DNA of 64,000 nucleotides from Anastatus disparis. Lineage: Eukaryota; Arthropoda; Insecta; Hymenoptera; Eupelmidae. The stretch covers positions 1,292,501-1,356,500 of the forward strand of contig JAFFSR010000021.1 of NCBI GenBank assembly GCA_017163975.1. The letters are read 5' to 3'. The position numbers were made by a program, and so were the translations under genes. Shown piece after piece: positions 11,388-32,753 of this stretch (the stretch's first letter is position 1; each line of letters opens with the position of its first letter). A model generated the notes under the pieces. The model worked only from the letters and a program-made list of their open reading frames with translations, was not told the DNA's origin and did not search any database.

Positions 11388-11660
11388 AGTAGTATATGGA
11401 CTGGTATAGCGAGACATATCGATTTTTTTGCACCTGTCTCTCTCCCCCATTATTTCGCTCCCCCTGTCTCGACCCCTCGTCTCGCTCCCCTTTTCATGTC
11501 TGGCAGGTATAAAGGGGCTGTATAATCGTGAATTGATTTGACCCACTTTCCCCCCACCTGTCTGGGTGAATAAGGTGTCCTCTCTCCCGCACCTGTCTGA
11601 GGGTGTTATAGGTTCTATGGTGACCTTGAAACCCTTAATGATTTGCATCTTCTGTCTTTT
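11388..11660. repeat. Polinton 1 terminal region, left copy, with GACAGGTG repeats
   Basis: The noncoding, pyrimidine-rich end of the element. The motif CACCTGTC (GACAGGTG on the other strand) occurs about four times, near 11431, 11559 and 11590 and in degenerate form in between. The spaced copies are reminiscent of the 16-bp repeats in the termini of Polinton 2. A TATAAAGG-like word near 11507 points inward, but no ORF follows it. Confidence 0.55.
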
Positions 11661-11927
11661 TTCTTCGCAGCCGTAAGTATAGTATATATGTATGTGTGTA
11701 TATGTATATTTTTTAATGTGAGTAACATTATAAAAATTAAATAAATAAGTAATTAAAAATCATATAACATTGTTATGAAAAAATATTAATATAAAAAATA
11801 TATTTTATAATATTAAAGGTCTGAATGTTATATAGTATTTTTTATCTATTAATTGTTATGATTTACGTATAAACTTTTGTTGGTTCTAAAAAGGACCGTA
11901 TGTAAGTATATGAATTTTTTTTTTAAA

Positions 11928-12089
11928 TTAAAATTTTTTGTATCCTTTCCATTCAGGAATAGAATAAGTGTTTGTTGAGAATTTATCAGAATATTGTTTC
12001 CAGGTTGATGATGATTCATTTTCCTTCTTTTTCTTATCGTCACCTTGTACTAAAGGTGTTTTGGCGGTGTTGGAACTATTTTGACCCAT
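11928..12089 (-). CDS. 53-aa MGQ protein, putative N-myristoylated (left copy, intact)
   Basis: A 53-residue ORF starts MGQNSS, which fits the N-myristoyltransferase consensus: Gly2 exposed after Met removal and Ser at position 6. The middle is Lys-rich and polar, followed by an STWKQY motif and a C-terminal aromatic/Lys end (GYKKF). Polinton 2 encodes a protein of exactly the same length at 60418-60579 with the same start, a TWKEY motif and a similar Lys-rich end, also next to the terminal repeat. That conservation is the main evidence that the gene is real. Role unknown; a membrane-targeted accessory or virion protein is an inference. Confidence 0.65.
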   Translation of the reverse strand: MGQNSSNTAKTPLVQGDDKKKKENESSSTWKQYSDKFSTNTYSIPEWKGYKKF

Positions 12090-12133
12090 AGTGTTAAACG
12101 CGTGATATACAGATATGATAAGAGACAGATTAT

Positions 12134-12310
12134 TTATTGTAAAAAGTTATTATTTAAATGAATATTTTCATTTGTGTTATTTTTTTTATTATGTTTTTGA
12201 GAACGTTCAAATTTTACTGTTTCTTTTTTATAATGTTCCTTATATTTTTCTCTTTTTATAGCACTGTCTATAGAACGTAATGGAGCGATCTTACCTGTGC
12301 ATTGCCCCAT
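12134..12310 (-). CDS. 58-aa MGQC protein, putative N-myristoylated and palmitoylated (left copy)
   Basis: The ORF can begin five codons earlier (12325), but the Met at 12310 gives MGQCTGK, a dual-acylation-type N-terminus (Gly2 plus Cys4). The rest is strongly basic (KREKYKEHYKKE) and then Asn-rich. It has no transmembrane segment and no recognised fold. It is transcribed in the same direction as, and just upstream of, the 53-aa MGQ protein, so the two form a pair of small acylation-type genes at the element's end. In the right arm the stop codon is lost. Confidence 0.55.
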   Translation of the reverse strand: MGQCTGKIAPLRSIDSAIKREKYKEHYKKETVKFERSQKHNKKNNTNENIHLNNNFLQ

Positions 12311-12436
12311 GTCTGTTTCAAGCAATCGTTATAAAATAAATGAAGAATTATTCAGAAGGGTGGTTGCTTTTATAGTTAAAAAAAAAAACAAGTCATTTAC
12401 ACAATTAAAGCAATTTATTAATATTAACATATATTT

Positions 12437-13090
12437 TTATGCCGGAATCATTACATCCCTCAAATCTTTTACAATCATCGGTAAACTAAATGCGGATATT
12501 TCAGATAAAACAAATTTTGAATATAAGCTTTTATGATGATCCGTATCATCTACCATATTTTCTGTGACGTAACCTTCTAATTCGGTATTGAGAATAGAAT
12601 AGTATTGTTTAAATGATTTGTAGTCGTTAAGAATTACTTTTGCGTTGTCCAGTCCTTCTTGTCCAAGTTTATTTTTTAAAAAGTCTAGTATGTGATCAGT
12701 AGTACGGTTGACCTTACCGACACGCTCGCTTAAATCGTTGAGAAGAAGATCTACCAAGACACTTTGTTGACGAAGACCTTCGAATGTTGACTGTTGCATA
12801 CCTGATGGATGATTGAAAGTCTTTCTCTTTTTGCAGAGCGATTGTCCTGGAGTCTCTTCTTCTTCCTCGGAGACGTGTATCTCGTTTGGGTGAGGTCTTT
12901 CGTCAATGCTGATAGATTTGGTGCCGTATGATGTGGTGAAATTTAAATCATGATTGGTTAGAAACAATTTAGTCGGTCTTCCGAAATCTTGATAAAAAGA
13001 ATAAGAATTATGAAAATAAGCTGTAATGGCGTCAAATTGATCTTTGAGAAAATCCCAGCTACGGCGATCAAGAGAGATACTTTTGTGCAA
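12437..13090 (-). CDS. Unknown 217-aa Polinton protein (left copy, intact 3' end)
   Basis: No family recognised with certainty. The N-terminal ~60 residues look like a compact domain (SLDRRSWDFLKDQF). A Glu-rich acidic stretch and a basic KKRK segment follow at about 70-90, then a long helical region (about 105-200). The right arm preserves it with few changes. Readable sequence of the same character continues upstream to about 13170 in this frame without a Met. A separate short frame begins with ATG at about 13240, so the true start may involve splicing or a lost frame. It lies next to the small MGQ genes. A role in replication or DNA handling is only a guess. Confidence 0.55.
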   Translation of the reverse strand: MHKSISLDRRSWDFLKDQFDAITAYFHNSYSFYQDFGRPTKLFLTNHDLNFTTSYGTKSISIDERPHPNEIHVSEEEEETPGQSLCKKRKTFNHPSGMQQSTFEGLRQQSVLVDLLLNDLSERVGKVNRTTDHILDFLKNKLGQEGLDNAKVILNDYKSFKQYYSILNTELEGYVTENMVDDTDHHKSLYSKFVLSEISAFSLPMIVKDLRDVMIPA

Positions 13091-13329
13091 GCCACCTGAT
13101 GAAACTAGTTTAATAACTTCGTGATAGTATCCGCCGCTATATTCAAGACCGACACAAATTCTCTTTGAGTTCGATAGTAGTAGATAATAAAAGGTTTGGC
13201 AAATCCGGTTTTACCGGATCGCGTAATTCACAAGGAGCCATTTTTATGTGTTGCTCTATCCGAAGTTGATTTTGTACTGAAATTTAAAAAGAACATTTTA
13301 CCTTACTGCGCATATGACAAATCAGAATG

Positions 13330-14912
13330 TAGAGGGCGGTAAATACTTTTATAATAGGGTAGTAACACCTGGTCTGTATATCAGGTGTGCAATACAAAAT
13401 ATATATAAATATATACTGCGACGAGTATACATACCCGCGCATTCAAATTTCCCGCCTAACGGCCAGCTACGATAGAACAGTAGTTCTGAGCTCAGCCGCC
13501 AGGTGGCAACTTCGAACGTCGTTGCACGCATCGGGAAAAATGAGGCCGGAGTATATAAGAGGCCGAGGAGCACAGCTAAGCAGAGCAGTGTAGACTACGG
13601 TCCTCTCTCTCTCTTTACCTTAGTAAGCACGCTAGGCTAAGAGAGAGTGGGGCCAGTAGTAGCTGGTTGCCTTGGCTTGTGGAGCACCGCAGCTTAGGCA
13701 AAGCTTCTCTCTCTTGTACATGGGGATAGACCGAGTGAGCACGCTGGTCTAAACTCTAGTGCATATGCTGGCAGTGTTAGAGATACGTCGAGTGAGCACG
13801 CCGGCGTAAATCTACCTGCCTAGAGCACACTAGCTATATTTTTGCCGCCGCCGCAATGCTGAACTTGCGCTGTTGAATTTAAGGGTGACGTCCACCGATA
13901 ATATTATATTCTATTTCACATTTCGCCGCTGGCTTAATTAAGGGTCTGGTTAACCCGTAGCCGTCGCGTCCGCCGCCACGTGATTATGGAATATATTAAG
14001 GGTGTCGTCCACCTAATTATTTAATTCACATTAAGTTAAAGGACTCCGTCCGGCCGCGCATAAACATTAGACATTAGAATAAGTTAAGGGTGTCGTCCAC
14101 CCAATACATTTTTGTTAGGACTCCGTCCGACCGCGTATAAATATTAGAACTTAGATTAAGTTAAGGGTGTCGGCCACCCATTGTCTTTACGTCACTTAAA
14201 GGTCCCGCATGCCTATAGAGATTTGTAACTCAGATAATTAAGGGAGCCGGCTACCCACCGTCATTATTGTTATTACCTCAGTATTAAGTATAGCGTTACT
14301 AGATGCCGCTGCCTAGTTATATTATAATTATTTAATTATTAAGTATTTATCTCTTTTGTTTTTTGCACATTGTTGCAGGTAAAAGCCGCCGGTATAAATT
14401 AGACCGTCCAGGCCGTAGAATCTTTAGTTAAAGTAAACTATAATTCAGATTCTTTGAAGATTATTGATTAATTGATTTTACTTATTAAATAGCCGTCAAG
14501 TGGCCGATTTAATTATTTTTGTACATTACATCCCGTTAAGGTTAGGTTAATTATTTGCATTATATAAGATCATTAGGTTTAGTTTTGATTAATACATTAT
14601 TATCATCTCATATTTGTAATCGTCGTTGTAAATGAGTTTTTATGAGTACAATAAAGCCAAGGTACTCCATAGCATAAACAAACGTGTTAAACCCGGTTTC
14701 TTTCCTTTACTTTCCACCGTCCGCTCCCTCCAACTCCTGCCGATCTTACCCTGGTAACTCACTGAAGCGTCTGGCAAAAGGAGTTACACGTATTTCCCCC
14801 TCCCGAAAGGGAAAAACGTTACAATACAAATTAAATAAAAAGAAATATTATTAGGGGTGGATAAATTTTATAATAGAATAATAACACCTGGTCTGTAGAC
14901 CAGGTGTACAAT

Positions 14913-14945
<33 letters not shown>
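13330..14945 (+). other. 1.6-kb noncoding module bounded by palindrome-bearing direct repeats (left arm)
   Basis: The bounds are two ~85-bp direct repeats (13330-13415 and 14855-14945), each containing the perfect or near-perfect palindrome ACACCTGGTCTGTAGACCAGGTGT. Inside is a strong TATA (GTATATAAG near 13551) followed at about 30 bp by an initiator-like GCAGTGTAG, and an AATAAAG signal near 14652. That layout suggests a transcribed LTR-like or ncRNA unit on the + strand. Between them, about six degenerate ~60-bp units carry the hairpin word GGGTGTCGTCCACCC (about 13880-14275), and GTGAGCACGC-type words repeat at 13620-13800. There is no ORF of note. The mirror copy is at about 29225-30800. 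Confidence 0.6.
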
Positions 14946-14959
<14 letters not shown>

Positions 14960-14960
<1 letters not shown>

Positions 14961-15644
14961 TAGGGGGGGTTCCCCCTGCTCGCTTCGCTCGCCAACCCCC
15001 CCATTGCATCACCTTCTACAAATATAAACTTTTATATATATAATTTTTAAATTTATATTAATTTAAAATTATTTTTTTTTTTTTTTTTTTGTTTCTTGGT
15101 CATGAAGATTAGTATTTATTAGAAGTTAAATACACTTATTAAGGTATATGAAGTTAAGTATAATAAAACGTTTTATGATAGTTTAATACTTTAAATATGT
15201 TGAAGATATCTATAATAATATTCAATCGCTTTACGATAGGAGCACAACCATTCAACGTATTTACCTCGAGCTCAGCCCAATGTTCTTTTCTCTTCCTAAT
15301 TTCGTTCATTCTTTGATAACAATTAATTAAATTAGCTAACAATTAACTACCTTTCAGCTATCTCTCAGCTAACTTTCAGCTAAATTTTATCTGAATTTCA
15401 GCCAACTTTTAGCTAACTTTCAGCTAAATTTTATCTGAATTTCAGCTATCTCTCAGCTAACTTTCAGCTAAATTTTATCTGAATTTCAGCTAACTTTTAG
15501 CTAACTTTCAGCTAAATTTTAGCTGAATTTCAGCTAACTTTTAGCTAAATTTTAGCTGAATTTCAGCTAACTGAGGGCACATAAAATTCTTATACACGGC
15601 GGCGGCGGCGGCGGCGGCGTAGGCGATATATCTTTATTATATAG

Positions 15645-15675
<31 letters not shown>
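14960..15675. repeat. Left-arm-only insertion in an AT microsatellite
   Basis: This ~700-bp stretch has no counterpart in the right arm, where only (AT)n is present. It holds a G/C inverted repeat near 14963-15002, a T-run at about 15071-15090, about five tandem units of ~45 bp built on CAGCTAA and TTTAGCTGAATTT (15345-15575), and a (CGG)n run at 15599-15619. It was therefore gained after the palindrome formed, or lost from the other arm. Confidence 0.7.
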
Positions 15676-15679
<4 letters not shown>

Positions 15680-15689
15680 TACAAACTAC

Positions 15690-16027
15690 GTACAAAAAAA
15701 CTATTATAGGTAGGATGGGAGGGTGGAGTAAAGGTAAGTAAATAATTACAAATTAATTTTCATGCACACAAAAGAAGATTTATTCACATATAAATTTCAA
15801 AATTGACATTGATTACAGTTAAATATAAAACACACGTTTGATTACAATATTTTGAAGTAAAATTATGAATATTATTATGTTTATCTTAATATCTTAACCT
15901 AGAAGTACATGTTTGATTATAAAGGCCTGAACCTCGAGAACGTTCTCCGGCGAATGTACTCGCCCGCTTACATCTTTTGCGTTTAATTTTATTTAAAATT
16001 CTTTTATAAAAATTTTCAGCTATTTTA
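15690..16027. other. 3' flanking region of the protease gene, no gene
   Basis: Conserved between the arms (mirror about 28821-29140) but without a recognisable protein. Overlapping frames here read through the tail of the protease gene in the wrong phase. It is probably 3' untranslated region. Confidence 0.4.
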
Positions 16028-16408
16028 TCATTTTTTCGTGTTATTTGAAAAGAAGCTACAAAACGCGCGTAAACTAGCACCGCTACACATATAATATAGA
16101 AACATAATAGTATACTGGCCGCAACACGTCGAATCGATGCTTTGCAGTTTCTTGGTGCTCCATCGAAAAACTTTACAGTTTCTTCTGAGTCTTTCAAGAT
16201 GGTATTTTGAGACTGGTGGGAAACCGTAACTATCGAAATACGTTCCGTATCCATTTTTATCGATATACATGGCCACCCAATGCGTACCAGGTTTGGTATG
16301 ATCATCGGTATTACACACAACAGCGACCGGTGTTATCATTACATTCGGAATTCGATCTGCTGCGTATACGCCAATTGTTTTGGCTTTCAGCCCTTCCAGG
16401 GCCCTCAT
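16028..16408 (-). CDS. PRO: Adenain-type cysteine protease (left copy)
   Basis: A C48/Ulp1-adenain family endopeptidase, which in adenovirus-like lineages cleaves virion precursors during maturation. Visible catalytic landmarks in order are GTHW (His), YFDSYG (Asp) and the nucleophile in TCCGQY, with the usual spacing. The protein is only about 126 aa from the first Met. That Met lies inside the end of the preceding 275-aa frame, overlapping by 98 bases in another phase. It may therefore be translated from the internal ATG, by frameshift, or as a fusion in an ancestor. Both arms have the same arrangement. The left and right copies differ at the very C-terminus because of an A-run length difference. 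Confidence 0.82.
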   Translation of the reverse strand: MRALEGLKAKTIGVYAADRIPNVMITPVAVVCNTDDHTKPGTHWVAMYIDKNGYGTYFDSYGFPPVSKYHLERLRRNCKVFRWSTKKLQSIDSTCCGQYTIMFLYYMCSGASLRAFCSFFSNNTKK

Positions 16409-17138
16409 TATCTGACTGGTGTTTATTTGTATTATTTTCCTGTGTTAAACTACAATTCTGATCATCATCACTCGCGTATTCTATGGTTTTATCGTCGTCG
16501 TTGTCATCGTCTACTTCGTCGATTCCCGTAAAAGTCACACTTGATCCAAATCTTACGATGCTATTTTTCTTGTAAGCAAGTTTTTGAAGAGAGTCATAGA
16601 ATAGTTCACAACTTCTTTTAGGCAGATTTTGTTGAGATTCTTGAGGGAGTAGTGAATAAAGCCACTCTCTCAACAGATGTGATCTCTGCATGGCACAGTA
16701 CTCCTTTTTATAGAGGTTTTCTTGGCAAGCGTGAAAACAGCATATTTTCTGGGAAGGAAACTGTCTTTGTAAGTCGGTAAAGCCTGTGGTGGTGTTATCC
16801 TCTATATTTATAACGTTACGTGCCATAATAGATTCTATGTATCTAGCCTTTTCAGCACCTCTGACGTAAATTCTTACAGCATTTCTCGCTATGTTGTAAA
16901 AATGATACCGTAATTTGCGTAGAATAACGTCACCATCAAACCACTGTAAACCGTGTAGACGTGACGACACGTAATCGTTACTAGTTTTTATATCTTCTGG
17001 TAAATTATCAAATTCGTAGGGTGGTGCTATTATCCAATGACCGATTACTTGTTCTTGCAGAGAAACTACTGCCACTTCTTTGGGTAAAAATTTATTATCT
17101 TTATCTCTTAAGCCTTGAATATCTATTACGTAATCCAT
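16311..17138 (-). CDS. D-x-Q-G family protein, RNase H-fold/exonuclease-like (left copy)
   Basis: 275 aa. It begins MDYVIDIQG and shares with three Polinton 2 proteins (48221-48808, 59259-59792, 59810-60280) this order: a Y-[VI]-x-D-[VIM]-Q-G strand, KE[VL]A, a hydrophobic strand plus PPY, HGLxW, an (F/Y)VxG..KA.(Y/W) segment and a Cys/His C-terminal cluster. The initial D-x-Q strand followed by spaced acidic residues and a Cys/His helix recalls DEDD-type exonuclease folds. That is an inference, and no such activity is established. About the last 30 residues read in a phase that looks non-native because the protease begins there in the other frame. A TATA-like ATTATAAG lies upstream. Confidence 0.6.
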   Translation of the reverse strand: MDYVIDIQGLRDKDNKFLPKEVAVVSLQEQVIGHWIIAPPYEFDNLPEDIKTSNDYVSSRLHGLQWFDGDVILRKLRYHFYNIARNAVRIYVRGAEKARYIESIMARNVINIEDNTTTGFTDLQRQFPSQKICCFHACQENLYKKEYCAMQRSHLLREWLYSLLPQESQQNLPKRSCELFYDSLQKLAYKKNSIVRFGSSVTFTGIDEVDDDNDDDKTIEYASDDDQNCSLTQENNTNKHQSDNEGPGRAESQNNWRIRSRSNSECNDNTGRCCV

Positions 17139-17260
17139 CGTGGTGAAAACGCGAGCTCGTATGTACTACTACGACTGAGTGTAAGAAGCAACTAGAGCAA
17201 TGAGAAATGAAATGAATGGTCTTATAATGTTTTTCCCATTATTTTCTCCACCCTTCCACC

Positions 17261-18601
17261 TTAGGCATTAAAATCCGTAATAATTTGTCTGTTTGAATCG
17301 ATTTCTAGCACGTTATCGAATTCGGCGTAAACGATGTAATTTATTGTTTTCCTAAGAGCCTGCTCAAAGCGAACTTCAATGCGCAGAGCACCCGAGCGCA
17401 CGAGATTCCAATGTGATGAAAAATGAGCCGACAAATCAGGCGTCAAGTCGAATGCAAAGAGACAGTAACCTTCTGGATAAGAGGTTCGGCTAACATCGAT
17501 ACCCTCGTTGAGAAAATGTATACCAGTACCGGAGAATAGCGTTTGATAAGCGTCTACATAGAGTTTATTATTTCCTGTGTATTTTGGCTGTAGGGGTTTG
17601 CTTGGTATTTGTACTCCATCGACGTAAAGAGAGAGAAAATTGATAGAATAATGTTGAAAATTGAAAGGATTCATTTGACGATTGCCGTTGAAAGCTCGGT
17701 TACTCACAAAACCTATGATGATCCTTTTTGGCAACTGGCCTAATATAACATTATCAAGAGTATCTCCTAAAATTCCGCTATGTAAAGTGAATGATTTCAC
17801 TTCCACTCTTGTTATTGGGTATTTTGCAGTAGTTTTGTTCAAAGCATTAGCATGAGCCAATAGTATGGCTGGACTTATTTTAGCTCGACGGACGATTAGC
17901 GTCGCTTCTCTGATGCGCACTGAAAATTTTCCGTCATTGGTGAAATCCATCAAACAAAACGCGTCCTTGCTACGAACGAGTCTCACTCGCATCTCAACAC
18001 CGTTTACCAAAAATTTACCTTGATTAAATACATCGCAATGGAGGTGGCCAATCATATCGACAACTTTACCGCCAGCTGTAAAGTATTGACGATTCCGAGA
18101 AGCGACATTGGCCCCAACTGTTCCGGTAGCAATTGCTGGTGATGCATCCATACATCCTGCTGTGTCCGCATACCAAAGTGCGGAGGTGAGGTGTGATGTT
18201 AAGGCAGGAGAAGCGTAATTTAAGAGCGTTTCTATGTAAGCTCTGTAAGGATAGGCGTTGTTTGGGGGTGAAACTAGCCTTGAATTGAAAAAGATGTCCG
18301 TTTGCTCGAACAACGAATGTGAAAAATTGTTAATAGGAGCAACTTTTGCATTCTCGGCGTCGGTTCCCACAGGTGTAATTACCACGCTTACTTGCAACAT
18401 TGTATGCGCTAGATCGATGTAATGCTCGGTCGAACCAGGAACCAAAAATTCTAAAGGTGAATCGCTTTCATTGCTGAGAGATGATACAGGTTTGTAGTAG
18501 AGAAAAGAACTGCTATCAATTGAAGTTTGCGTCGGGGGAAGAGTAAAAATATCTAGTTCGCTCTTCGTACCTTCACCACTGCACGCGTGTAGAAAAGCCA
18601 T
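17261..18601 (-). CDS. MCP: Major capsid protein, double jelly-roll (left copy, intact)
   Basis: 446 aa, intact. The length, the beta-rich composition and the overall character match the arthropod and nematode Polinton MCPs long annotated as 'F54H12.2-like'. Recognisable stretches are the SSSFLYYKPV strand near the N-terminus, LFEQTDIFFNSRLVS, and the C-terminal SLYVDGVQIPSKP block. It is expected to trimerise into hexon-like capsomers. It sits just downstream of the basic core-like gene (stop 18617, MCP ATG 18601) in the same direction. The right-arm copy has a nonsense codon, so this is the element's only full MCP reading frame. Confidence 0.88.
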   Translation of the reverse strand: MAFLHACSGEGTKSELDIFTLPPTQTSIDSSSFLYYKPVSSLSNESDSPLEFLVPGSTEHYIDLAHTMLQVSVVITPVGTDAENAKVAPINNFSHSLFEQTDIFFNSRLVSPPNNAYPYRAYIETLLNYASPALTSHLTSALWYADTAGCMDASPAIATGTVGANVASRNRQYFTAGGKVVDMIGHLHCDVFNQGKFLVNGVEMRVRLVRSKDAFCLMDFTNDGKFSVRIREATLIVRRAKISPAILLAHANALNKTTAKYPITRVEVKSFTLHSGILGDTLDNVILGQLPKRIIIGFVSNRAFNGNRQMNPFNFQHYSINFLSLYVDGVQIPSKPLQPKYTGNNKLYVDAYQTLFSGTGIHFLNEGIDVSRTSYPEGYCLFAFDLTPDLSAHFSSHWNLVRSGALRIEVRFEQALRKTINYIVYAEFDNVLEIDSNRQIITDFNA

Positions 18602-18616
18602 TTTTTTTAAAATGAT

Positions 18617-18934
18617 TTATTTAGGTCCAAAAATGTCAAATACACTTCTCAATACTTTCTTCTTCTTTTGCCTTGATGTTTTCTTTTTCTTGCCTATACC
18701 ACGCTTATTTGTCTTTCTCTTTGTCTTTCTTTTCTTGCTCGATGCTTTGTGTGCGGGAACACGAGCTCGCGTTGACTGTCGTTTGCGCTTAGCAGTAACA
18801 GCTTTATATCCACTACCTTTCATAATATTGAAAATTTTATTAGCTGCTTTTCTTTTTAAATTTCGACCCGACTCTCGAGCACGTGTGTTGAGAGACTCTT
18901 TAAAATTCGCTCTCTTCCGTATCACCAACTGCAT
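18617..18934 (-). CDS. Small very basic protein, adenovirus core-protein-like (left copy)
   Basis: About 105 aa with more than a third Lys/Arg. The C-terminal half is almost entirely runs such as SSKKRKTKRKTNKR and GKKKKTSRQ. This composition resembles adenoviral DNA-condensing core proteins (pVII/pX type), so packaging of viral DNA is a reasonable inference. The start overlaps the end of the penton gene by about 35 bases. The C-terminus differs from the right-arm copy by a one-base difference in a T-run. Confidence 0.6.
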   Translation of the reverse strand: MQLVIRKRANFKESLNTRARESGRNLKRKAANKIFNIMKGSGYKAVTAKRKRQSTRARVPAHKASSKKRKTKRKTNKRGIGKKKKTSRQKKKKVLRSVFDIFGPK

Positions 18935-19516
18935 AAGGTTCGCATATGTCTGTGTAAACGTAGAGCTGATCGGGTATGGCCCGTGCTAAACTAGCTGGTC
19001 TATTGCCCACATTTATACTTGTTCCTGAGTTGGAAGTGACAAAAGTTTCTGTTTCTCTGTGGACAATATCTTCAAAACCAAAAATACGACGAATTTTTTC
19101 GTTGAAAGTCGTGTAATGCGGCTCTTCGCAAATGCAAATCCTTTTTAAGGTGTAATAACCTTTCTGAAACTCAGTCGGTTCAAGCTTCTGATGTTCACGC
19201 GCCTCGTGTACTTTATTTATTTCTTCCGCAAGTTGTTCAATGCTACTGTATACGCCATGAGGGAAATTACAAACCCATTATTTTTCGAAACTTTGGGCTT
19301 AGCACTTCCTAATTTGAAAGTATAATAAACTTCAGGTTCTTGAATATGCATAATAGTACAGGGTATGTGTATTTCGGCTATACCGACCTGCCAGTTACCG
19401 ATTAATCTAATTTCACGACATAAATAAGTGGTAAAACAAGTAGTCGTATTGTCGGGAAAATAGCGCATACTACTGTTACTCGGTAGTACTAAATAAAAAT
19501 CATCTAGATTATCCAT
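18900..19516 (-). pseudogene. Penton-like minor capsid protein (left copy, frameshifted)
   Basis: Homologous to the intact 205-aa frame at 25322-25939. One base is missing from a short homopolymer at about 19271-19273 (three instead of four), shifting the frame after about residue 84. Otherwise the arm preserves the whole sequence. See the right copy for the annotation. Confidence 0.8.
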
Positions 19517-19521
19517 TATTT

Positions 19522-21407: not shown

Positions 21408-21434
21408 AATTTTTTGTTTTGCCTTGAAAGAAAA

Positions 21435-21896: not shown

Positions 21897-21954
21897 CGCT
21901 ATTTGAAGACTGCTTCTCCGCTACGGATGCTTCTTTCTTTTTATTTCTTCATGC

Positions 21955-22881: not shown

Positions 22882-22939
22882 GCATGAAGAAATAAAAAGA
22901 AAGAAGCATCCGTAGCGGAGAAGCAGTCTTCAAATAGCG

Positions 22940-23401: not shown

Positions 23402-23428
23402 TTTTCTTTCAAGGCAAAACAAAAAATT

Positions 23429-24195: not shown

Positions 24196-25316
24196 AGAGA
24201 ATGTCTTTGGAAAATCAGTATTACGACCCTTCGCACGAAGCAGGTTATGCAGGAGCGCGAAATTTAATACGTGTAAATATAAAGGGTAAATCATTGAAAA
24301 ACAGAGAAAAAGAACAAAAACGAATACACGACTGGTTGAATAATCAAGATGCTTATACTCTTCACCGTCCTGTAAGAAAAAAATTTCCTAGATTACACTA
24401 TAACGTAACTAACGTGGATGACGTTTGGGAAGCAGATTTGTGTCAGCTAACAAGTCTTAAAAAAGAAAATGACGGTTATTCGTATTTACTAGTAGTCATT
24501 GACGTGCTCAGTAAGTATGCATGGGTAGAACCACTGAGGGATAAAACAGCGCATACTGTATCAGCTGCATTAGAGAAGATTCTTAAGCGAGCCAATGGTC
24601 GTACACCTGTTTACTTACAAACTGACAAAGGTAAAGAATTTGTTGGTGCAGGTTTGCAAAATACTCTTAAAAAATATGACATACAGTTCAGAGCGGCAAG
24701 AAATCCGGACATTAAGGCGGCAGTGGTAGAACGTCTTAATCGAACTCTGAAAGAACGCGTTTGGAGATATTTCACACATCGCAATACACATAGGTACATC
24801 GATGTAATACAAAAGATAGTATATGCATACAACGATACAGTACATTCAGGTATAAAGATGAAACCTTCAGAGGTTAATTTATATAACGCAGCTGAGGCAC
24901 GAGCGAATTTACAGAGGCGCGCTCTTCAGCAAAGAAAAAATCAAAGGCAAATAAAAGACCGTAAATACGAGGTTGGTGACTACGTGAGGATCAGTCGCTC
25001 TAAGGGAACCTTTGCGAAAGGATTCGAGAAGAATTAAAGCGAGGAAGTATTTAAAGTTAAACGCTTTTCTATCAGGCAAAATCTTTATACCTACGAGTTA
25101 CAAGATTTACAAGGAGAGGACATTGACGGTTTCTTTTATACAGAAGAATTGGCTCCTGTAGGATCACAACGACTACTGGAAGATCAAAATTTTAAAATTG
25201 AACGAGTTCTTTGGACCAAAGGAAGCGGAAATAAAAAACAGCTATTTGTAAAGTGGAAAGGATATCCGGATGAATTTAATTCTTGGATAAAAGCATCAGA
25301 CGTTGAAAGAATTTAA
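24174..25316 (+). pseudogene. INT: Polinton integrase with chromodomain (right copy, one internal stop)
   Basis: A retroviral-type DDE (rve) integrase that would join the element's ends to target DNA with 6-bp duplication. The first 287 codons are open. The first Asp is in EADLCQL (about residue 88), the second in LQTDKGKEF (about 151) and the Glu in AVVERLNRTLK (about 186), close to D-35-E spacing. A basic segment follows (KYEVGDYVRIS, as in the integrase C-terminal SH3-like region). A TAA at 25035-25037 then interrupts the frame, which continues in phase to 25316 through a chromodomain-like ending (FVKWKGYPDEFNSWI). The same TAA is in the left arm. The N-terminal zinc-finger part appears reduced. 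It overlaps the upstream gene by 22 bases. Confidence 0.88.
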
Positions 25317-25321
25317 AAATA

Positions 25322-25939
25322 ATGGATAATCTAGATGATTTTTATTTAGTACTACCGAGTAACAGTAGTATGCGCTATTTTCCCGACAATACGACTACTT
25401 GTTTTACCACTTATTTATGTCGTGAAATTAGATTAATCGGTAACTGGCAGGTCGGTATAGCCGAAATACACATACCCTGTACTATTATGCATATTCAAGA
25501 ACCTGAAGTTTATTATACTTTCAAATTAGGAAGTGCTAAGCCCAAAGTTTCGAAAAATAATGGGTTTTGTAATTTCCCTCATGGCGTATACAGTAGCATT
25601 GAACAACTTGCGGAAGAAATAAATAAAGTACACGAGGCGCGTGAACATCAGAAGCTTGAACCGACTGAGTTTCAGAAAGGTTATTACACCTTAAAAAGGA
25701 TTTGCATTTGCGAAGAGCCGCATTACACGACTTTCAACGAAAAAATTCGTCGTATTTTTGGTTTTGAAGATATTGTCCACAGAGAAACAGAAACTTTTGT
25801 CACTTCCAACTCAGGAACAAGTATAAATGTGGGCAATAGACCAGCTAGTTTAGCACGGGCCATACCCGATCAGCTCTACGTTTACACAGACATATGCGAA
25901 CCTTATGCAGTTGGTGATACGGAAGAGAGCGAATTTTAA
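25322..25939 (+). CDS. Penton-like minor capsid protein (right copy, intact)
   Basis: 205 aa, intact, starting 5 bases after the integrase stop. The N-terminal half is beta-rich with a YLCREIRLIGNWQVGIAEI strand pair. Polinton minor capsid (penton, single jelly-roll) proteins have this position, next to the MCP, and this general length. The C-terminus (RAIPDQLYVYTDICEPYAVGD) is well preserved in other members as far as I can judge. It would occupy the fivefold vertices. It overlaps the basic protein gene by 35 bases. The left-arm copy is frameshifted, so this is the usable one. Confidence 0.72.
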   Translation: MDNLDDFYLVLPSNSSMRYFPDNTTTCFTTYLCREIRLIGNWQVGIAEIHIPCTIMHIQEPEVYYTFKLGSAKPKVSKNNGFCNFPHGVYSSIEQLAEEINKVHEAREHQKLEPTEFQKGYYTLKRICICEEPHYTTFNEKIRRIFGFEDIVHRETETFVTSNSGTSINVGNRPASLARAIPDQLYVYTDICEPYAVGDTEESEF

Positions 25940-26231
25940 AGAGTCTCTCAACACACGTGCTCGAGAGTCGGGTCGAAATTTAAAAAGAAAAGCAGCTAAT
26001 AAAATTTTCAATATTATGAAAGGTAGTGGATATAAAGCTGTTACTGCTAAGCGCAAACGACAGTCAACGCGAGCTCGTGTTCCCGCACACAAAGCATCGA
26101 GCAAGAAAAGAAAGACAAAGAGAAAGACAAATAAGCGTGGTATAGGCAAGAAAAAGAAAACATCAAGGCAAAAGAAGAAGAAAGTATTGAGAAGTGTATT
26201 TGACATTTTGGACCTAAATAAATCATTTTAA
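25905..26231 (+). CDS. Small very basic core-like protein (right copy)
   Basis: Mirror of 18617-18934. It is 108 aa here because a one-base difference in a T-run changes the last residues after the Lys-rich tail. A role in DNA condensation is inferred from composition only. The MCP start follows 5 bases after its stop. Confidence 0.6.
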   Translation: MQLVIRKRANFKESLNTRARESGRNLKRKAANKIFNIMKGSGYKAVTAKRKRQSTRARVPAHKASSKKRKTKRKTNKRGIGKKKKTSRQKKKKVLRSVFDILDLNKSF

Positions 26232-26236
26232 AAAAA

Positions 26237-27577
26237 ATGGCTTTTCTACACGCGTGCAGTGGTGAAGGTACGAAGAGCGAACTAGATATTTTTACTCTTC
26301 CCCCGACGCAAACTTCAATTGATAGCAGTTCTTTTCTCTACTACAAACCTGTATCATCTCTCAGCAATGAAAGCGATTCACCTTTAGAATTTTTGGTTCC
26401 TGGTTCGACCGAGCATTACATCGATCTAGCGCATACAATGTTGCAAGTAAGCGTGGTAATTACACCTGTGGGAACCGACGCCGAGAATGCAAAAGTTGCT
26501 CCTATTAACAATTTTTCACATTCGTTGTTCGAGCAAACGGACATCTTTTTCAATTCAAGGCTAGTTTCACCCCCAAACAACGCCTATCCTTACAGAGCTT
26601 ACATAGAAACGCTCTTAAATTACGCTTCTCCTGCCTTAACATCACACCTCACCTCCGCACTTTGGTATGCGGACACAGCAGGATGTATGGATGCATCACC
26701 AGCAATTGCTACCGGAACAGTTGGGGCCAATGTCGCTTCTCGGAATCGTCAATACTTTACAGCTGGCGGTAAAGTTGTCGATATGATTGGCCACCTCCAT
26801 TGCGATGTATTTAATCAAGGTAAATTTTTGGTAAACGGTGTTGAGATGCGAGTGAGACTCGTTCGTAGCAAGGACGCGTTTTGTTCGATGGATTTCACCA
26901 ATGACGGAAAATTTTCAGTGCGCATCAGAGAAGCGACGCTAATCGTCCGTCGAGCTAAAATAAGTCCAGCCATACTATTGGCTCATGCTAATGCTTTGAA
27001 CAAAACTACTGCAAAATACCCAATAACAAGAGTGGAAGTGAAATCATTCACTTTACATAGCGGAATTTTAGGAGATACTCTTGATAATGTTATATTAGGC
27101 CAGTTGCCAAAAAGGATCATCATAGGTTTTGTGAGTAACCGAGCTTTCAACGGCAATCGTCAAATGAATCCTTTCAATTTTCAACATTATTCTATCAATT
27201 TTCTCTCTCTTTACGTCGATGGAGTACAAATACCAAGCAAACCCCTACAGCCAAAATACACAGGAAATAATAAACTCTATGTAGACGCTTATCAAACGCT
27301 ATTCTCCGGTACTGGTATACATTTTCTCAACGAGGGTATCGATGTTAGCCGAACCTCTTATCCAGAAGGTTACTGTCTCTTTGCATTCGACTTGACGCCT
27401 GATTTGTCGGCTCATTTTTCATCACATTGGAATCTCGTGCGCTCGGGTGCTCTGCGCATTGAAGTTCGCTTTGAGTAGGCTCTTAGGAAAACAATAAATT
27501 ACATCGTTTACGCCGAATTCGATAACGTGCTAGAAATCGATTCAAACAGACAAATTATTACGGATTTTAATGCCTAA
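26237..27577 (+). pseudogene. Major capsid protein (right copy, nonsense codon)
   Basis: Same frame and length as the intact left copy, but a TAG at 27476-27478 stops it after 413 residues, about 33 short of the full C-terminus. At least one further substitution is visible (Leu to Ser in the KDAFC.MDF stretch). Loss of the C-terminal strand region would probably prevent proper folding. Confidence 0.85.
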
Positions 27578-27700
27578 GGTGGAAGGGGTGGAGAAAATAA
27601 TGGGAAAAACATTATAAGACCATTCATTTCATTTCTCATTGCTCTAGTTGCTTCTTACACTCAGTCGTAGTAGTACATACGAGCTCGCGTTTTCACCACG
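27578..27700 (+). promoter_or_regulatory. Likely promoter of the D-x-Q-G/protease unit (right arm)
   Basis: ATTATAAGACC at about 27613-27623 is a TATA-like element, with TCACTCAGTC-like initiator sequence some 45 bases on and the ATG at 27701. The same arrangement is present in the left arm at about 17139-17260. Confidence 0.4.
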
Positions 27701-28528
27701 ATGGATTACGTAATAGATATTCAAGGCTTAAGAGATAAAGATAATAAATTTTTACCCAAAGAAGTGGCAGTAGTTTCTCTGCAAGAACAAGTAATCGGTC
27801 ATTGGATAATAGCACCACCCTACGAATTTGATAATTTACCAGAAGATATAAAAACTAGTAACGATTACGTGTCGTCACGTCTACACGGTTTACAGTGGTT
27901 CGATGGTGACGTTATTCTACGCAAATTACGGTATCATTTTTACAACATAGCGAGAAATGCTGTAAGAATTTACGTCAGAGGTGCTGAAAAGGCTAGATAC
28001 ATAGAATCTATTATGGCACGTAACGTTATAAATATAGAGGATAACACCACCACAGGCTTTACCGACTTACAAAGACAGTTTCCTTCCCAGAAAATATGCT
28101 GTTTTCACGCTTGCCAAGAAAACCTCTATAAAAAGGAGTACTGTGCCATGCAGAGATCACATCTGTTGAGAGAGTGGCTTTATTCACTACTCCCTCAAGA
28201 ATCTCAACAAAATCTGCCTAAAAGAAGTTGTGAACTATTCTATGACTCTCTTCAAAAACTTGCTTACAAGAAAAATAGCATCGTAAGATTTGGATCAAGT
28301 GTGACTTTTACGGGAATCGACGAAGTAGACGATGACAACGACGACGATAAAACCATAGAATACGCGAGTGATGATGATCAGAATTGTAGTTTAACACAGG
28401 AAAATAATACAAATAAACACCAGTCAGATAATGAGGGCCCTGGAAGGGCTGAAAGCCAAAACAATTGGCGTATACGCAGCAGATCGAATTCCGAATGTAA
28501 TGATAACACCGGTCGCTGTTGTGTGTAA
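27701..28528 (+). CDS. D-x-Q-G family protein, exonuclease-like fold (right copy)
   Basis: Mirror of 16311-17138 with the same 275-codon length. It contains HGLQWFDGDVIL, YVRGAEKARY and a Cys/His cluster CCFHACQENLYKKEYCAMQ. An acidic stretch (DDDNDDDK) precedes the region where the protease frame starts. See the left copy for reasoning. Confidence 0.6.
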   Translation: MDYVIDIQGLRDKDNKFLPKEVAVVSLQEQVIGHWIIAPPYEFDNLPEDIKTSNDYVSSRLHGLQWFDGDVILRKLRYHFYNIARNAVRIYVRGAEKARYIESIMARNVINIEDNTTTGFTDLQRQFPSQKICCFHACQENLYKKEYCAMQRSHLLREWLYSLLPQESQQNLPKRSCELFYDSLQKLAYKKNSIVRFGSSVTFTGIDEVDDDNDDDKTIEYASDDDQNCSLTQENNTNKHQSDNEGPGRAESQNNWRIRSRSNSECNDNTGRCCV

Positions 28529-28820
28529 TACCGATGATCATACCAAACCTGGTACGCATTGGGTGGCCATGTATATCGATAAAAATGGATACGGAACGTA
28601 TTTCGATAGTTACGGTTTCCCACCAGTCTCAAAATACCATCTTGAAAGACTCAGAAGAAACTGTAAAGTTTTTCGATGGAGCACCAAGAAACTGCAAAGC
28701 ATCGATTCGACGTGTTGCGGCCAGTATACTATTATGTTTCTATATTATATGTGTAGCGGTGCTAGTTTACGCGCGTTTTGTAGCTTCTTTTCAAATAACA
28801 CGAAAAAAATGATAAAATAG
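28431..28820 (+). CDS. PRO: Adenain-type cysteine protease (right copy)
   Basis: 129 aa. The catalytic His (GTHW), Asp (YFDSYG) and Cys (TCCGQY) are all present. It overlaps the preceding gene by 98 bases in a different phase. The C-terminus is three residues longer than on the left because of one extra A in the terminal A-run. Confidence 0.82.
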   Translation: MRALEGLKAKTIGVYAADRIPNVMITPVAVVCNTDDHTKPGTHWVAMYIDKNGYGTYFDSYGFPPVSKYHLERLRRNCKVFRWSTKKLQSIDSTCCGQYTIMFLYYMCSGASLRAFCSFFSNNTKKMIK

Positions 28821-29163
28821 CTGAAAATTTTTATAAAAGAATTTTAAATAAAATTAAACGCAAAAGATGTAAGCGGGCGAGTACATTCGCCGGAGAACGT
28901 TCTCGAGGTTCAGGCCTTTATAATCAAACATGTACTTCTAGGTTAAGATATTAAGATAAACATAATAATATTCATAATTTTACTTCAAAATATTGTAATC
29001 AAACGTGTGTTTTATATTTAACTGTAATCAATGTCAATTTTGAAATTTATATGTGAATAAATCTTCTTTTGTGTGCATAAAAATTAATTTGTAATTATTT
29101 ACTTACCTTTACTCCACCCTCCCATCCTACCTATAATAGTTTTTTTGTAATGTAGTTGTTAAT

Positions 29164-29223
<60 letters not shown>

Positions 29224-30800
29224 TATTTGTATTGTACACCTGGTCTACAGACCAGGTGTTATTATTCTATTATAAAATTTATCCACCCCTAATAATATTT
29301 CTCTTTATTTAATTTGTATTGTAACGTTTTTCCCTTTCGGGAGGGGGAAATACGTGTAACTCCTTTTGCCAGACGCTTCAGTGAGTTACCAGGGTAAGAT
29401 CGGCAGGAGTTGGAGGGAGCGGACGGTGGAAAGTAAAGGAAAGAAACCGGGTTTAACACGTTTGTTTATGCTATGGAGTACCTTGGCTTTATTGTACTCA
29501 TAAAAACTCATTTACAACGACGATTACAAATATGAGATGATAATAATGTATTAATCAAAACTAAACCTAATGATCTTATATAATGCAAATAATTAACCTA
29601 ACCTTAACGGGATGTAATGTACAAAAATAATTAAATCGGCCACTTGACGGCTATTTAATAAGTAAAATAAATTAATCAATAATCTCCAAAGAATCTGAAT
29701 TATAGTTTACTTTAACTAAAGATTCTACGGCCTGGACGGTCTAATCTATACCGGCGGCTTTTACCTGCAACAATGTGCAAAAAACAAAAGAGATAAATAC
29801 TTAATAATTAAATAATTATAATATAACTAGGCGGCGGCATCTAGTAACGCTATGCTCAATACTACGGTAATAACAATAATGACGGTGGGTAGCCGGCTCC
29901 CTTAATTATCTGAGTTACAAATCTCTATAGGCATGCGGGACCTTTAAGTGACGTAAAGACAATGGGTGGCCGACACCCTTAACTTAATCTAAGTTCTAAT
30001 ATTTATACGCGGTCGGACGGAGTCCTAACAAAAATGTATTGGGTGGACGACACCCTTAACTTATTCTAATGTCTAATGTTTATGCGCGGCCGGACGGAGT
30101 CCTTTAACTTAATGTGAATTAAATAATTAGGTGGACGACGCCCTTAATATATTCCATAATCACGTGGCGGCGGACGCGACGGCTACGGGTTAACCAGACC
30201 CTTAATTAAGCCAGCGGCGAAATGTGAAATAGAATATAATATTATGGGTGGACGTCACCCTTAAATTCAACAGCGCAAGTTCGGCATTGCGGCGGCGGCA
30301 AAAAAATAGCTAGTGTGCTCTAGGCAAGTAGATTTACGCCAGCGTGCTCACTCGACGTATCTCTAACACTGCCAGCATATGCACTAGAGTTTAGACCAGC
30401 GTGCTCACTCGGTCTATCCCCATGTACAAGAGAGAGAAGCTTTGCCTAAGCTGTGGTGCTCCACAAGCCAAGGCAACCAGCTACTACTGGCCCCACTCTT
30501 TCTTAGCCTAGCGTGCTCACTAAGGTAAAGAGAGAGAGAGGACCGTAGTCTACACTGCTCTGCTTAGCTGTGCTTCTCGGCCTCTTATATACTCCGGCCT
30601 CATTTTTCCCGATGCGTGCAACGACGTTCGAAGTTGCCACCTGGCGGCTGAGCTCAGAACTACTGTTCTATCGTAGCTGGCCGTTAGGCGGGAAATTTGA
30701 ATGCGCGGGTATGTATACTCGTCGCAGTATATATTTATATATATTTTGTATTGCACACCTGATATACAGACCAGGTGTTACTACCCTATTATAAAAGTAT
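28821..30800 (-). other. Noncoding region with the mirrored 1.6-kb module (right arm)
   Basis: Holds the protease 3' flank, an (AT)n run at 29167-29219, and the mirror image of the left module. The two palindromes are near 29236-29259 and 30755-30779. The hairpin-word repeats lie between about 29885 and 30260, and the TATA (on the minus strand) near 30586-30594. There is no extra insertion as in the left arm and no supported ORF. Confidence 0.6.
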
Positions 30801-31052
30801 TTACCGCCCTCTACATTCTGATTTGTCATATGCGCAGTAAGGTAAAATGTTCTTTTTAAATTTCAGTACAAAATCAACTTCGGATAGAGCAACACATAAA
30901 AATGGCTCCTTGTGAATTACGCGATCCGGTAAAACCGGAATTGCCAAACCTTTTATTATCTACTACTATCGAACTCAAAGAGAATTTGTGTCGGTCTTGA
31001 ATATAGCGGCGGATACTATCACGAAGTTATTAAACTAGTTTCATCAGGTGGC

Positions 31053-31706
31053 TTGCACAAAAGTATCTCTCTTGATCGCCGTAGCTGGGATTTTCTCAAA
31101 GATCAATTTGACGCCATTACAGCTTATTTTCATAATTCTTATTCTTTTTATCAAGATTTCGGAAGACCGACTAAATTGTTTCTAACCAATCATGATTTAA
31201 ATTTCACCACATCATACGGCACCAAATCTATCAGCATTGACGAAAGACCTCACCCAAACGAGATACACGTCTCCGAGGAAGAAGAAGAGACTCCAGGACA
31301 ATCGCTCTGCAAAAAGAGAAAGACTTTCAATCATCCATCAGGTATGCAACAGTCAACATTCGAAGGTCTTCGTCAACAAAGTGTCTTGGTAGATCTTCTT
31401 CTCAACGATTTAAGCGAGCGTGTCGGTAAGGTCAACCGTACTACTGATCACATACTAGACTTTTTAAAAAATAAACTTGGACAAGAAGGACTGGACAACG
31501 CAAAAGTAATTCTTAACGACTACAAATCATTTAAACAATACTATTCTATTCTCAATACCGAATTAGAAGGTTACGTCACAGAAAATATGGTAGATGATAC
31601 GGATCATTATAAAAGCTTATATTTAAAATTTGTTTTATCTGAAATATCCGCATTAAGTTTACCGATGATTGTATAAGATTTGAGGGATGTAATGATTCCT
31701 GTATAA
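31053..31706 (+). pseudogene. Unknown 217-aa protein (right copy, stop near the end)
   Basis: Identical in layout to the left copy at 12437-13090. A Lys codon has become TAA at 31674-31676, removing the last ~10 residues; the original stop is at 31704. As on the left, an ATG-led short frame at about 30902 precedes it out of phase, so the true 5' end is unclear. Confidence 0.55.
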
Positions 31707-31830
31707 AAATGTATGTTAATATTAATAAATTGCTTTAATTGTGTAAATGACTTGTTTTTTTTTAACTATAAAAGCAACCACCCTTTCCAATAATTCATTA
31801 TTTATTTTATAACGATTGCTCGAAACAGAC

Positions 31831-32091
31831 ATGGGGCAATGCACAGGTAAGATCGCTTCATTACGTTCTACAGACAGTGCTATAAAAAGAGAAAAATATA
31901 AGGAACATTATAAAAAAGAAACAGTAAAATTTGAACGTTCTCAAAAACATAATAAAAAAAATAACACAAATGAAAATATTCATTTAAATAATAACTTTTT
32001 ACAATATATAACCTGTCTCTTATCATATCTGTATATCACGCGTTTAACACTATGGGTCAAAATAGTTCCAACATCGCCAAAACACCTTTAG
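31831..32091 (+). CDS. MGQC small protein (right copy, stop lost)
   Basis: Begins MGQCTGK like the left copy. The stop codon used on the left (TAA after FLQ) reads TAT here, so the frame runs on for about 28 further codons into what is noncoding on the left and overlaps the next gene. The extension is probably not native. Confidence 0.5.
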   Translation: MGQCTGKIASLRSTDSAIKREKYKEHYKKETVKFERSQKHNKKNNTNENIHLNNNFLQYITCLLSYLYITRLTLWVKIVPTSPKHL

Positions 32092-32198
32092 TACAAGGTG
32101 TCGATAAGAAAAAGAAGGAAAATCAATCATCATCAACCTGGAAACAATATTCTGATAAATTCTCAACAAACACTTATTCTATTCCTGAAAGGAAATGA
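32052..32198 (+). CDS. MGQ small protein (right copy, slightly truncated)
   Basis: 48 codons with the same MGQNSS start and STWKQY motif. A Gly codon has become TGA five residues before the left copy's end, and a Trp has changed to Arg just before. The N-terminal myristoylation-type signal is unchanged. Confidence 0.55.
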   Translation: MGQNSSNIAKTPLVQGVDKKKKENQSSSTWKQYSDKFSTNTYSIPERK

Positions 32199-32753
32199 TA
32201 CAAAAAATTTTAATTTAAAAAAAAAATTCATATACTTACATACGGTCCTTTTTAGGACCAACAAAAGTTTATACGTAAGAAATAACAATTAATAGATAAA
32301 AAATACTATATAACTTTCAGACCTTTAATATTATAAAATATATTTTTTATATCAATATTTTTTCATAACAATGTTATATGATTTTTAATTACTTATTTAT
32401 TTAATTTTTATAATGTTACTCACATCAAAAAATATACATATACACACATACATATATACTATACTTACGGCTGCGAAGAAAAAAGACAGAAGATGCAAAT
32501 CATTAAGGATTTCAAGGTCACCATAGAACCTATAACACCCTCAGACAGGTGCGGGAGAGAGGACACCTTATTCACCCAGACAGGTGGGGGGAAAGTGGGT
32601 CAAATCAATTCACGATTATACAACCCCTTTATACCTGCCAGACATGAAAAGGGGAGCGAGACAAATGGTCGAGACAGGTGGAGCGAAACAATGGGGGAGA
32701 GAGACAGGTGCAAAAAAATCGATATGTCTCGCTATACCAGTCCATATACTACT
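32199..32753. repeat. Polinton 1 terminal region, right copy
   Basis: Mirror of 11388-11927. GACAGGTG occurs at about 32544, 32579, 32672 and 32703. It ends in ...CCATATACTACT next to the target duplication. There is no gene. Confidence 0.6.

What the first reader, a model, noticed from the sequence alone, without database searches (positions are those of the whole stretch)
11388..32753. A whole Polinton integrated as a giant palindrome, like an adenovirus snap-back genome
The sequence shows two ~10-kb arms with the same genes in mirror order around a 523-bp unique centre. They are bounded by perfect AG...CT ends and one 6-bp duplication (GTCGCG), with the host gag frame continuing on both sides. 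So the palindrome behaves as a single integrated unit. Established knowledge: protein-primed linear genomes such as adenovirus produce inverted-duplicated defective genomes when the copying strand folds back. Polintons encode protein-primed PolB. Inference: this is a fixed snap-back Polinton that lost the PolB half, so it would depend on another element for replication, yet it has two identical termini any integrase could use. If others exist, it is a new structural class.
Basis: partly seen in the sequence, partly recalled or inferred. Interest (0 to 1): 0.92.

Follow-up and report, generated by a model that had tools for sequence, protein, structure and literature searches.

The report
Palindromic Polinton lacking its polymerase
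A virus-like jumping gene (a Polinton) sits in what looks like a wasp genome as a 21-kb mirror image of one of its own halves, inserted as a single piece and without its own DNA polymerase, which is what a fold-back copying accident of a virus-like linear genome would leave behind.

Summary
Element 11388-32753 (21,366 bp) has ends AGTAGT...ACTACT, one 6-bp duplication (GTCGCG), a 523-bp single-copy centre and two mirror-image arms. Leaving it out restores a Ty3-type gag frame, so the palindrome entered as one unit. The centre continues the LEFT arm's ATPase gene; the right arm keeps only its last 66 residues, which gives the turn a direction. No PolB was found; an ordinary Polinton with PolB lies nearby (37033-60968). 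New here: the arms differ unevenly (outer 3.5 kb 1.6%, in patches; inner 6.5 kb 0.08%), so conversion or recombination has acted, and both arms share two broken genes. Best reading: a helper-dependent snap-back derivative of a hymenopteran Polinton, formed before integration and now decaying. Not excluded: joining of two broken genomes, or an assembly or amplification artefact in the near-identical inner arms. No second copy could be sought in the host: that search was unreachable in 14 tries, and six scans of viral and prokaryote collections, which hold no insect genomes, found no relatives.

The parts
11382..11387 (.). Target-site duplication GTCGCG, left copy
32754..32759 (.). Target-site duplication GTCGCG, right copy
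11388..22156 (+). Left arm, 10,769 bp, begins AGTAGTATATGG
22157..22679 (.). Single-copy centre (fold-back loop in the favoured model), 523 bp; codes ATPase residues 1-153 of 220
22680..32753 (-). Right arm, 10,074 bp, inverted copy of the left arm, ends CCATATACTACT
21955..22617 (-). Packaging-type ATPase (Pox_A32), complete only on the left-arm side
22681..22881 (+). Remnant of the ATPase in the right arm (residues 155-220 and stop)
17261..18601 (-). Major capsid protein, left-arm copy, 446 aa, open throughout
26237..27577 (+). Major capsid protein, right-arm copy, one premature stop near the 3' end
24171..25316 (+). Integrase, right-arm copy: rve core 24171-25034, in-frame TAA at 25035-25037, chromodomain piece 25038-25316
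19525..20665 (-). Integrase, left-arm copy: same TAA, plus two single-base length differences that shift the frame
28431..28820 (+). Adenain-like protease (Peptidase_C5), right-arm copy
16031..16408 (-). Protease, left-arm copy (126 of 129 aa colinear, then frame shift)
25322..25939 (+). 205-aa gene (minor-capsid label is recalled; no Pfam match), right-arm copy; left-arm copy 18903-19516 split by a frame shift
16311..17138 (-). 275-aa gene next to the protease, left-arm copy; mirror copy 27701-28528
21435..21896 (-). 153-aa gene, left-arm copy; mirror copy 22940-23401
20808..21407 (-). 199-aa gene, left-arm copy; right-arm pieces between 23429 and 24195; frame shifts differ between the arms
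18617..18985 (-). 122-aa lysine/arginine-rich gene, left-arm copy; mirror copy from 25854
12437..13210 (-). Outermost gene, left arm; mirror copy 30933-31706 with an extra stop; N-terminal part in another frame in both arms
14951..15648 (.). 698 bp present only in the left arm, between two (TA)n runs
10661..11387 (+). Host Ty3-type gag, 3' part, interrupted by the element
37033..60968 (.). Second, ordinary Polinton (control): TSD AATATA; PolB, integrase, ATPase and capsid genes once each

Best explanation
This is a helper-dependent, PolB-less derivative of a hymenopteran Polinton. It formed as an extrachromosomal palindrome and was then integrated once into a Ty3-type retroelement. Steps: (1, inferred) during protein-primed strand-displacement copying from the left end, the 3' end of a strand stopped near 22679, just beyond the ATPase start; (2, inferred) it folded back, paired near 22156 and copied its own strand back to the terminus, giving a hairpin with a 523-nt loop; (3, inferred) another round from the only open end, with PolB supplied in trans, opened the hairpin into a linear palindromic duplex with two left ends; (4, single integration of the whole unit at GTCGCG is shown; the enzyme is inferred) an integrase used its two identical ends; (5, outcome shown, mechanism inferred) parts of the arms diverged while the inner arms stayed or were made almost identical.
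For: One TSD and a restored gag frame, with the palindrome's limits exactly at the element's ends: duplication inside the chromosome would not be expected to stop there. The end motif AGTAGT/ACTACT equals the (AGT)2//(ACT)2 Maverick ends in PMC8097293 (passages). The centre is contiguous with the left arm's ATPase, which is truncated on the right: a turn with one direction and an asymmetric loop. The missing half is the PolB half: no stop-to-stop frame above 451 codons in the element and no PolB match (best E 1.3), while the same query set finds the integrase at 1.8e-63. AAV snapback genomes are described as symmetric, or asymmetric with a loop (PMC8235507, abstract and passages); chromosomal fold-back duplications carry a single-copy spacer at the loop (PMC3907307, abstract and passages). 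Size 21.4 kb lies in the 12.7-24.6 kb range of intact vertebrate Mavericks.
Against: The arms are not equally similar: 56 of 3,528 sites differ in the outer part, 5 of 6,454 in the inner part. A fresh snap-back starts with identical arms, so a second process (gene conversion, or recombination with another copy) must be added. Microhomology at the turn could not be examined. Only one copy seen. No parent found, though those collections hold no insect genomes.
Confidence: 0.5

Rival explanations
1. Two broken or different left halves were joined end to end (end joining, or switching to a second molecule) instead of one strand folding back on itself; the product was then integrated as a unit.
For: Predicts the same ends, TSD and unequal centre; two different parents would explain divergence between the outer arms.
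Against: Two parents should differ along the whole length, but 6.5 kb of inner arm are nearly identical (5 of 6,454), so recombination is still needed.
Confidence: 0.2
2. Artefact: the locus holds an ordinary Polinton with long (at least 3-4 kb) terminal inverted repeats, and the inner arms were duplicated by inverted chimeric reads (whole-genome amplification, missed adapters) and mis-joined.
For: Inner arms differ only by five substitutions, all transitions, and eight one-base length differences in or next to short homopolymer runs, as one sequence read twice might. Palindromic reads after amplification are common and produced inverted duplications in an assembly (PMC6218980, passages). Platform and read depth are unknown to me.
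Against: Real differences reach about 15.7 kb (698-bp indel; 36 transitions to 20 transversions in the outer arm), so the true TIRs would have to exceed 3 kb, against 46-1,447 bp in 134 intact vertebrate Mavericks and about 0.3 kb in the neighbour Polinton. The turn lies at one fixed site with a 523-bp loop.
Confidence: 0.2
3. The palindrome is the inherited form of an established family with giant gene-bearing inverted repeats, mobilised as such, not a first-generation accident.
For: Both arms share lesions (integrase stop, outer-gene frameshift), which a lineage replicating in trans could carry.
Against: Shared lesions also follow from arm-to-arm conversion or a defective parent. No other copy seen; the host genome was not searched.
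Confidence: 0.08
4. Two Polintons inserted separately, or a duplication arose inside the chromosome after insertion.
For: Nested insertions are common in general; two Polintons do lie in this retroelement.
Against: Matching 6-bp duplication and restored frame across the whole palindrome; chimeric Galileo copies, by contrast, are bounded by different target sequences (PMC3573991, passages).
Confidence: 0.02

Closest known systems
Polinton/Maverick elements of Hymenoptera (e.g. Nasonia, Trichomalopsis)
   Same: Capsid protein 72-78% identical to its six best hits, among them a Nasonia (75%) and a Trichomalopsis protein (72% over 48% of the query); integrase with chromodomain, adenain-like protease, A32 ATPase, 6-bp TSD, (AGT)2 ends
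   Different: No PolB, half of the gene set doubled as mirror image, inverted repeats of 10 kb instead of hundreds of bases
Snap-back (copy-back) defective genomes: AAV snapback genomes; adenovirus incomplete-particle genomes (the latter recalled; Daniell 1976 was not held)
   Same: Inverted duplication of one terminus, loss of the other half, symmetric or asymmetric loop, replication with helper functions (PMC8235507, abstract and passages)
   Different: Here fixed in a chromosome with a transposon-type target duplication
Fold-back inverted duplications of human chromosomes (PMC3907307, abstract and passages)
   Same: Single-copy spacer at the turn, inferred intrastrand fold-back
   Different: Chromosome ends, spacers 766-70,466 bp; no mobile-element ends
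Galileo / Foldback-like transposons (PMC3573991, passages)
   Same: Non-autonomous copies with inverted repeats lengthened by inverted internal sequence
   Different: TIRs of 18 to about 1,260 bp, P-superfamily transposase, 7-bp target sequences

Membership tests
Polinton/Maverick (as an autonomous element) | Protein-primed PolB | tested here: not met
   No PolB match (best E 1.3) with integrase positive control 1.8e-63; no stop-to-stop frame above 451 codons. Hence filed as Polinton-derived, not as a Polinton
Polinton/Maverick | 6-bp target duplication and TIRs with AG/CT ends | tested here: met
   GTCGCG; AGTAGT...ACTACT
Polinton/Maverick | Retroviral-type integrase | tested here: met
   rve E 6.8e-16, Chromo 2.4e-07, but split by a stop in both arms
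Polinton/Maverick | Adenain-like protease and A32-type ATPase | tested here: met
   Peptidase_C5 7.1e-05; Pox_A32 1.2e-06
Polinton/Maverick | Double jelly-roll major capsid protein | tested here: met
   Model of moderate confidence (pLDDT 69.5) matches Sputnik (TMq 0.54) and mavirus (TMq 0.48) capsid proteins; no Pfam match
Snap-back/copy-back defective genome | One terminus duplicated in inverted form, other end lost | tested here: met
Snap-back/copy-back defective genome | Single-copy loop contiguous with one arm | tested here: met
   ATPase residues 1-153 in the centre, rest in the left arm
Snap-back/copy-back defective genome | Arms identical at birth | tested here: inconclusive
   Inner 5 of 6,454 sites differ, outer 56 of 3,528; age of the differences unknown
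Snap-back/copy-back defective genome | Inverted microhomology at the turn | not testable with these tools
   Parent sequence beyond 22679 not available
Snap-back/copy-back defective genome | Replicates with a helper | not testable with these tools
   Needs experiment
Galileo/Foldback-like elements | P-superfamily transposase, 7-bp target duplication | tested here: not met
   6-bp duplication, retroviral-type integrase

The most novel reading that the evidence does not exclude
Polintons regularly throw off palindromic copy-back genomes that replicate and integrate with enzymes supplied by full-length relatives: a defective-interfering class of a virus-like transposon, preserved in the germ line with doubled capsid genes and two identical ends.
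Probability: 0.15. Interest if true: 0.82.

Novelty: new variant of a known kind. Interest (0 to 1): 0.6.

Why it matters
If the locus is real, it is structural evidence, left in a chromosome, that Polintons pass through a linear stage outside the chromosome: the palindrome must have existed before integration, and protein-primed, strand-displacing copying is the likely way to make it. It would also show that the integrase accepts a molecule with two copies of the same end, and would give a way to search sequenced genomes for copy-back Polintons as fossils of replication.

Tried and rejected
Separate insertions or post-insertion duplication: rejected by the single target duplication and restored gag frame. 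Chromosomal recombination between two elements: same reason. Hidden PolB: no match, with a working positive control. The 698-bp stretch as an inserted element: its self-comparison showed tandem copies but no inverted repeat joining its two ends; it lies between two (TA)n runs, so loss from the right arm is likelier. Dating by broken genes: expected nonsense in 6,006 nt of inner coding sequence is 1.8-3.7 for 0.8-1.6% drift, one shared stop seen, P 0.45-0.12, so inconclusive. Divergence change exactly at the (TA)n run, which an assembly break would suggest: not so, the best change point is 14475, about 440 bp outside it.

Led nowhere: five scans of viral contigs and one of genome contigs confirmed no relatives (pattern matches 0, 29, 82, 5, 3 and 25, none confirmed by tblastn); tRNA scan none; outer-gene model too weak (pLDDT 59.3) to search folds with. 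Literature: (listings only: titles and starts of abstracts; 20 of 44, 4 of 4, 25 of 35, 3 of 3 and 30 of 726 papers listed) showed no report of a palindromic Polinton; one paper holding both 'polinton' and 'head-to-head' was checked by passages and uses the word for gene pairs (PMC12721341). The library holds open-licence papers only, so this is weak evidence of absence. Daniell 1976 on adenovirus incomplete particles was not held; its content is recalled, and I saw only its entry in a reference list.
Full report
WHAT IS THERE. The self-comparison of the window shows one very long inverted repeat. Its limits are 11388 and 32753; the ends read AGTAGTATATGG...CCATATACTACT and are flanked by GTCGCG at 11382-11387 and 32754-32759. 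With the element and one GTCGCG left out, the reading frame of a Ty3-type gag continues; the surrounding retroelement carries matches to Ty3_capsid (E 1e-5, below the curated cut-off), an aspartyl protease, RVT_1, RNase H and integrase. The two arms are 10,769 and 10,074 bp and enclose 523 bp of single-copy sequence, 22157-22679.

GENES. The genes named here read leftwards in the left arm and rightwards in the right arm: ATPase (Pox_A32, 1.2e-06), integrase core (rve, 6.8e-16) with chromodomain (2.4e-07), adenain-like protease (Peptidase_C5, 7.1e-05), a capsid protein, and six further frames (153, 199, 205, 275, 257 and 122 aa) without a Pfam match. The capsid protein matches 'F54H12.2-like' proteins of Nasonia vitripennis (75% identity), a Trichomalopsis protein (72% over 48% of the query) and, best, an unnamed protein at 78% (2,153 matches among 7,969 candidates scored, 120 listed). 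So the host is probably a chalcid wasp (inference). A model of it (pLDDT 69.5, pTM 0.75) matches double jelly-roll capsid proteins of Sputnik (3j26, TMq 0.54), mavirus (6g44, TMq 0.48) and grouper iridovirus (8hif), at 6-13% identity. The best viral match is a Cotesia bracovirus protein, 48% identical; Maverick-derived genes beside a bracovirus locus are described in PMC2646287 (passages). One Trichomalopsis protein (P0127) joins, by eye, the start of the 275-aa gene to the outermost gene in one prediction, so these two genes lie close together in a related wasp too.

NO POLYMERASE. The PolB pieces of the neighbouring Polinton find nothing in the element (best E 1.3), although that Polinton's integrase finds both integrase copies (1.8e-63 and 1.4e-35). 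The longest stop-to-stop frame in the element is 451 codons, the capsid gene. The PolB query is itself a broken, distant copy, so a very diverged fragment could be missed; a whole gene could not.

DIRECTION OF THE TURN. The centre is not neutral spacer. It holds ATPase residues 1-153, in frame with the rest in the left arm; the right arm keeps only residues 155-220. So 11388-22679 is colinear with an ordinary left half (inference from the unbroken gene), and the sequence turns round at 22679|22680. That is what a strand that stopped near 22679, folded back and resumed near 22156 would leave.

THE ARMS ARE NOT UNIFORMLY ALIKE. 67 substitutions lie in 10,067 aligned sites. By segment: 36 of 1,146; 1 of 1,032; 18 of 907; 1 of 443 (the outer 3.5 kb), then 6 of 85 around a (TA)n run, then 5 of 6,454 (inner arm). 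With the 85 columns of the (TA)n stretch left out, the best change point is at 14475, log-likelihood gain 47.5 against at most 8.7 in 300 permutations; the longest substitution-free gap of the outer arm (668 bp) was not reached in 2,000 shuffles. The segment limits were chosen by eye from the list; the two shuffle tests do not use them. Outer differences are 36 transitions to 20 transversions. Inner differences are five transitions and eight one-base length differences, in or next to short homopolymer runs; the latter look like consensus errors (inference). The left arm holds 698 bp more, between two (TA)n runs. A snap-back molecule begins with identical arms, so either arm-to-arm gene conversion kept parts identical after integration, or recombination with another copy made parts different before it. 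I cannot separate these. One caution: the near-identical patch 12536-13567 overlaps the outermost gene.

DECAY. Both arms carry the same TAA between integrase core and chromodomain. Of 36 relatives examined (P0130-P0165, of 120 listed and 953 found), 35 span the site; all 35 have W (16), F (13) or Y (6), none a stop. Both arms also share a frameshift in the N-terminal part of the outermost gene (by comparison with P0121). Arm-specific damage: a premature stop in the right capsid copy and near the end of the right outermost gene, frame shifts in the left integrase, 205-aa gene and protease end, and different frame shifts in the 199-aa gene of each arm. The shared lesions were either in the parent or spread by conversion. 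If the parent's integrase already lacked the chromodomain, integration may have used an enzyme in trans (inference). A simple dating by broken genes is inconclusive.

INTERNAL CONTROL. 37033-60968 is a second Polinton in the same retroelement: AGTAGATAAGC ends, TSD AATATA, frame restored when left out, about 0.3-kb TIRs, PolB in two frames (DNA_pol_B_2, 3e-5, below the curated cut-off), integrase (rve 5.9e-12), ATPase (Pox_A32 0.0011, below cut-off) and a DJR-like capsid gene (5.8e-117). These four genes occur once each, so a region-wide assembly habit of mirroring is not evident, though short palindromes do occur inside it.

COMPARISON. Vertebrate Mavericks have TIRs of 46-1,447 bp, sizes of 12.7-24.6 kb and (AG)3 or (AGT)2 ends (PMC8097293, passages). 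The present element fits the ends and the size and breaks the TIR range. AAV snapback genomes are described as partial self-complementary genomes with an ITR, symmetric or with a loop (PMC8235507, abstract and passages). Human fold-back duplications show a single-copy spacer, and 2-8 bp inverted microhomology at 13 of 21 sequenced junctions (PMC3907307, abstract and passages). That adenovirus makes such molecules is recalled from the older literature. By the rule on defining features I do not file it as a Polinton, since PolB was tested and not found; it is Polinton-derived and works, in the favoured reading, like a copy-back defective genome.

ARTEFACT. This remains, with the joining of two molecules, the most serious rival. 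Amplified DNA gives palindromic reads that reach assemblies (PMC6218980, passages), and nanopore reads of inverted duplications have more base-calling errors (PMC7229812, abstract only). The inner arms are nearly identical enough to be one sequence counted twice. Against it: real differences extend about 4.3 kb inwards, which would require TIRs longer than any in the cited vertebrate set, and the turn has a fixed 523-bp loop. I give it 0.2. The search of the host genome that would have helped most was unreachable in all 14 tries.

VERDICT. Observation confirmed; interpretation partly supported. A single, well-bounded palindromic Polinton derivative is a new variant of a known kind; the claim of a class rests on copies that I could not look for.

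Noticed in passing
37033-60968: A second Polinton of a different family in the same Ty3-type retroelement, TSD AATATA; PolB split over two frames.
   Followed up: partly
44710-45650: Near-perfect palindrome (470-nt arms, 98%, 1-nt spacer) inside the second Polinton; another at 46599-47314 (339-nt arms, 93%).
   Followed up: no
35053-35449: Hairpin-like repeat (192-nt arms, 92%) at the point where the reverse transcriptase/RNase H frame of the host retroelement ends; possibly a small palindromic transposon.
   Followed up: no
2712-8243: 5.5-kb region of self-similar repeats about 70% alike, T-rich on the + strand (AT skew to -0.49), left of the retroelement.
   Followed up: no
60969-61166: Frame reading PKDGNCFFHSV next to the second Polinton joins a frame on its other side when the element is left out; it resembles an OTU-type motif (recalled) within the retroelement.
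   Followed up: no
12437-13210 and 30933-31706: Outermost gene of the palindrome has only nine detected relatives (six unnamed, three Trichomalopsis); weak model with N-terminal strands and long C-terminal helices.
   Followed up: partly
48464-48868 and 59780-60280: Two frames near opposite ends of the second Polinton look, by eye, like each other and like the 275-aa gene of the palindrome.
   Followed up: no
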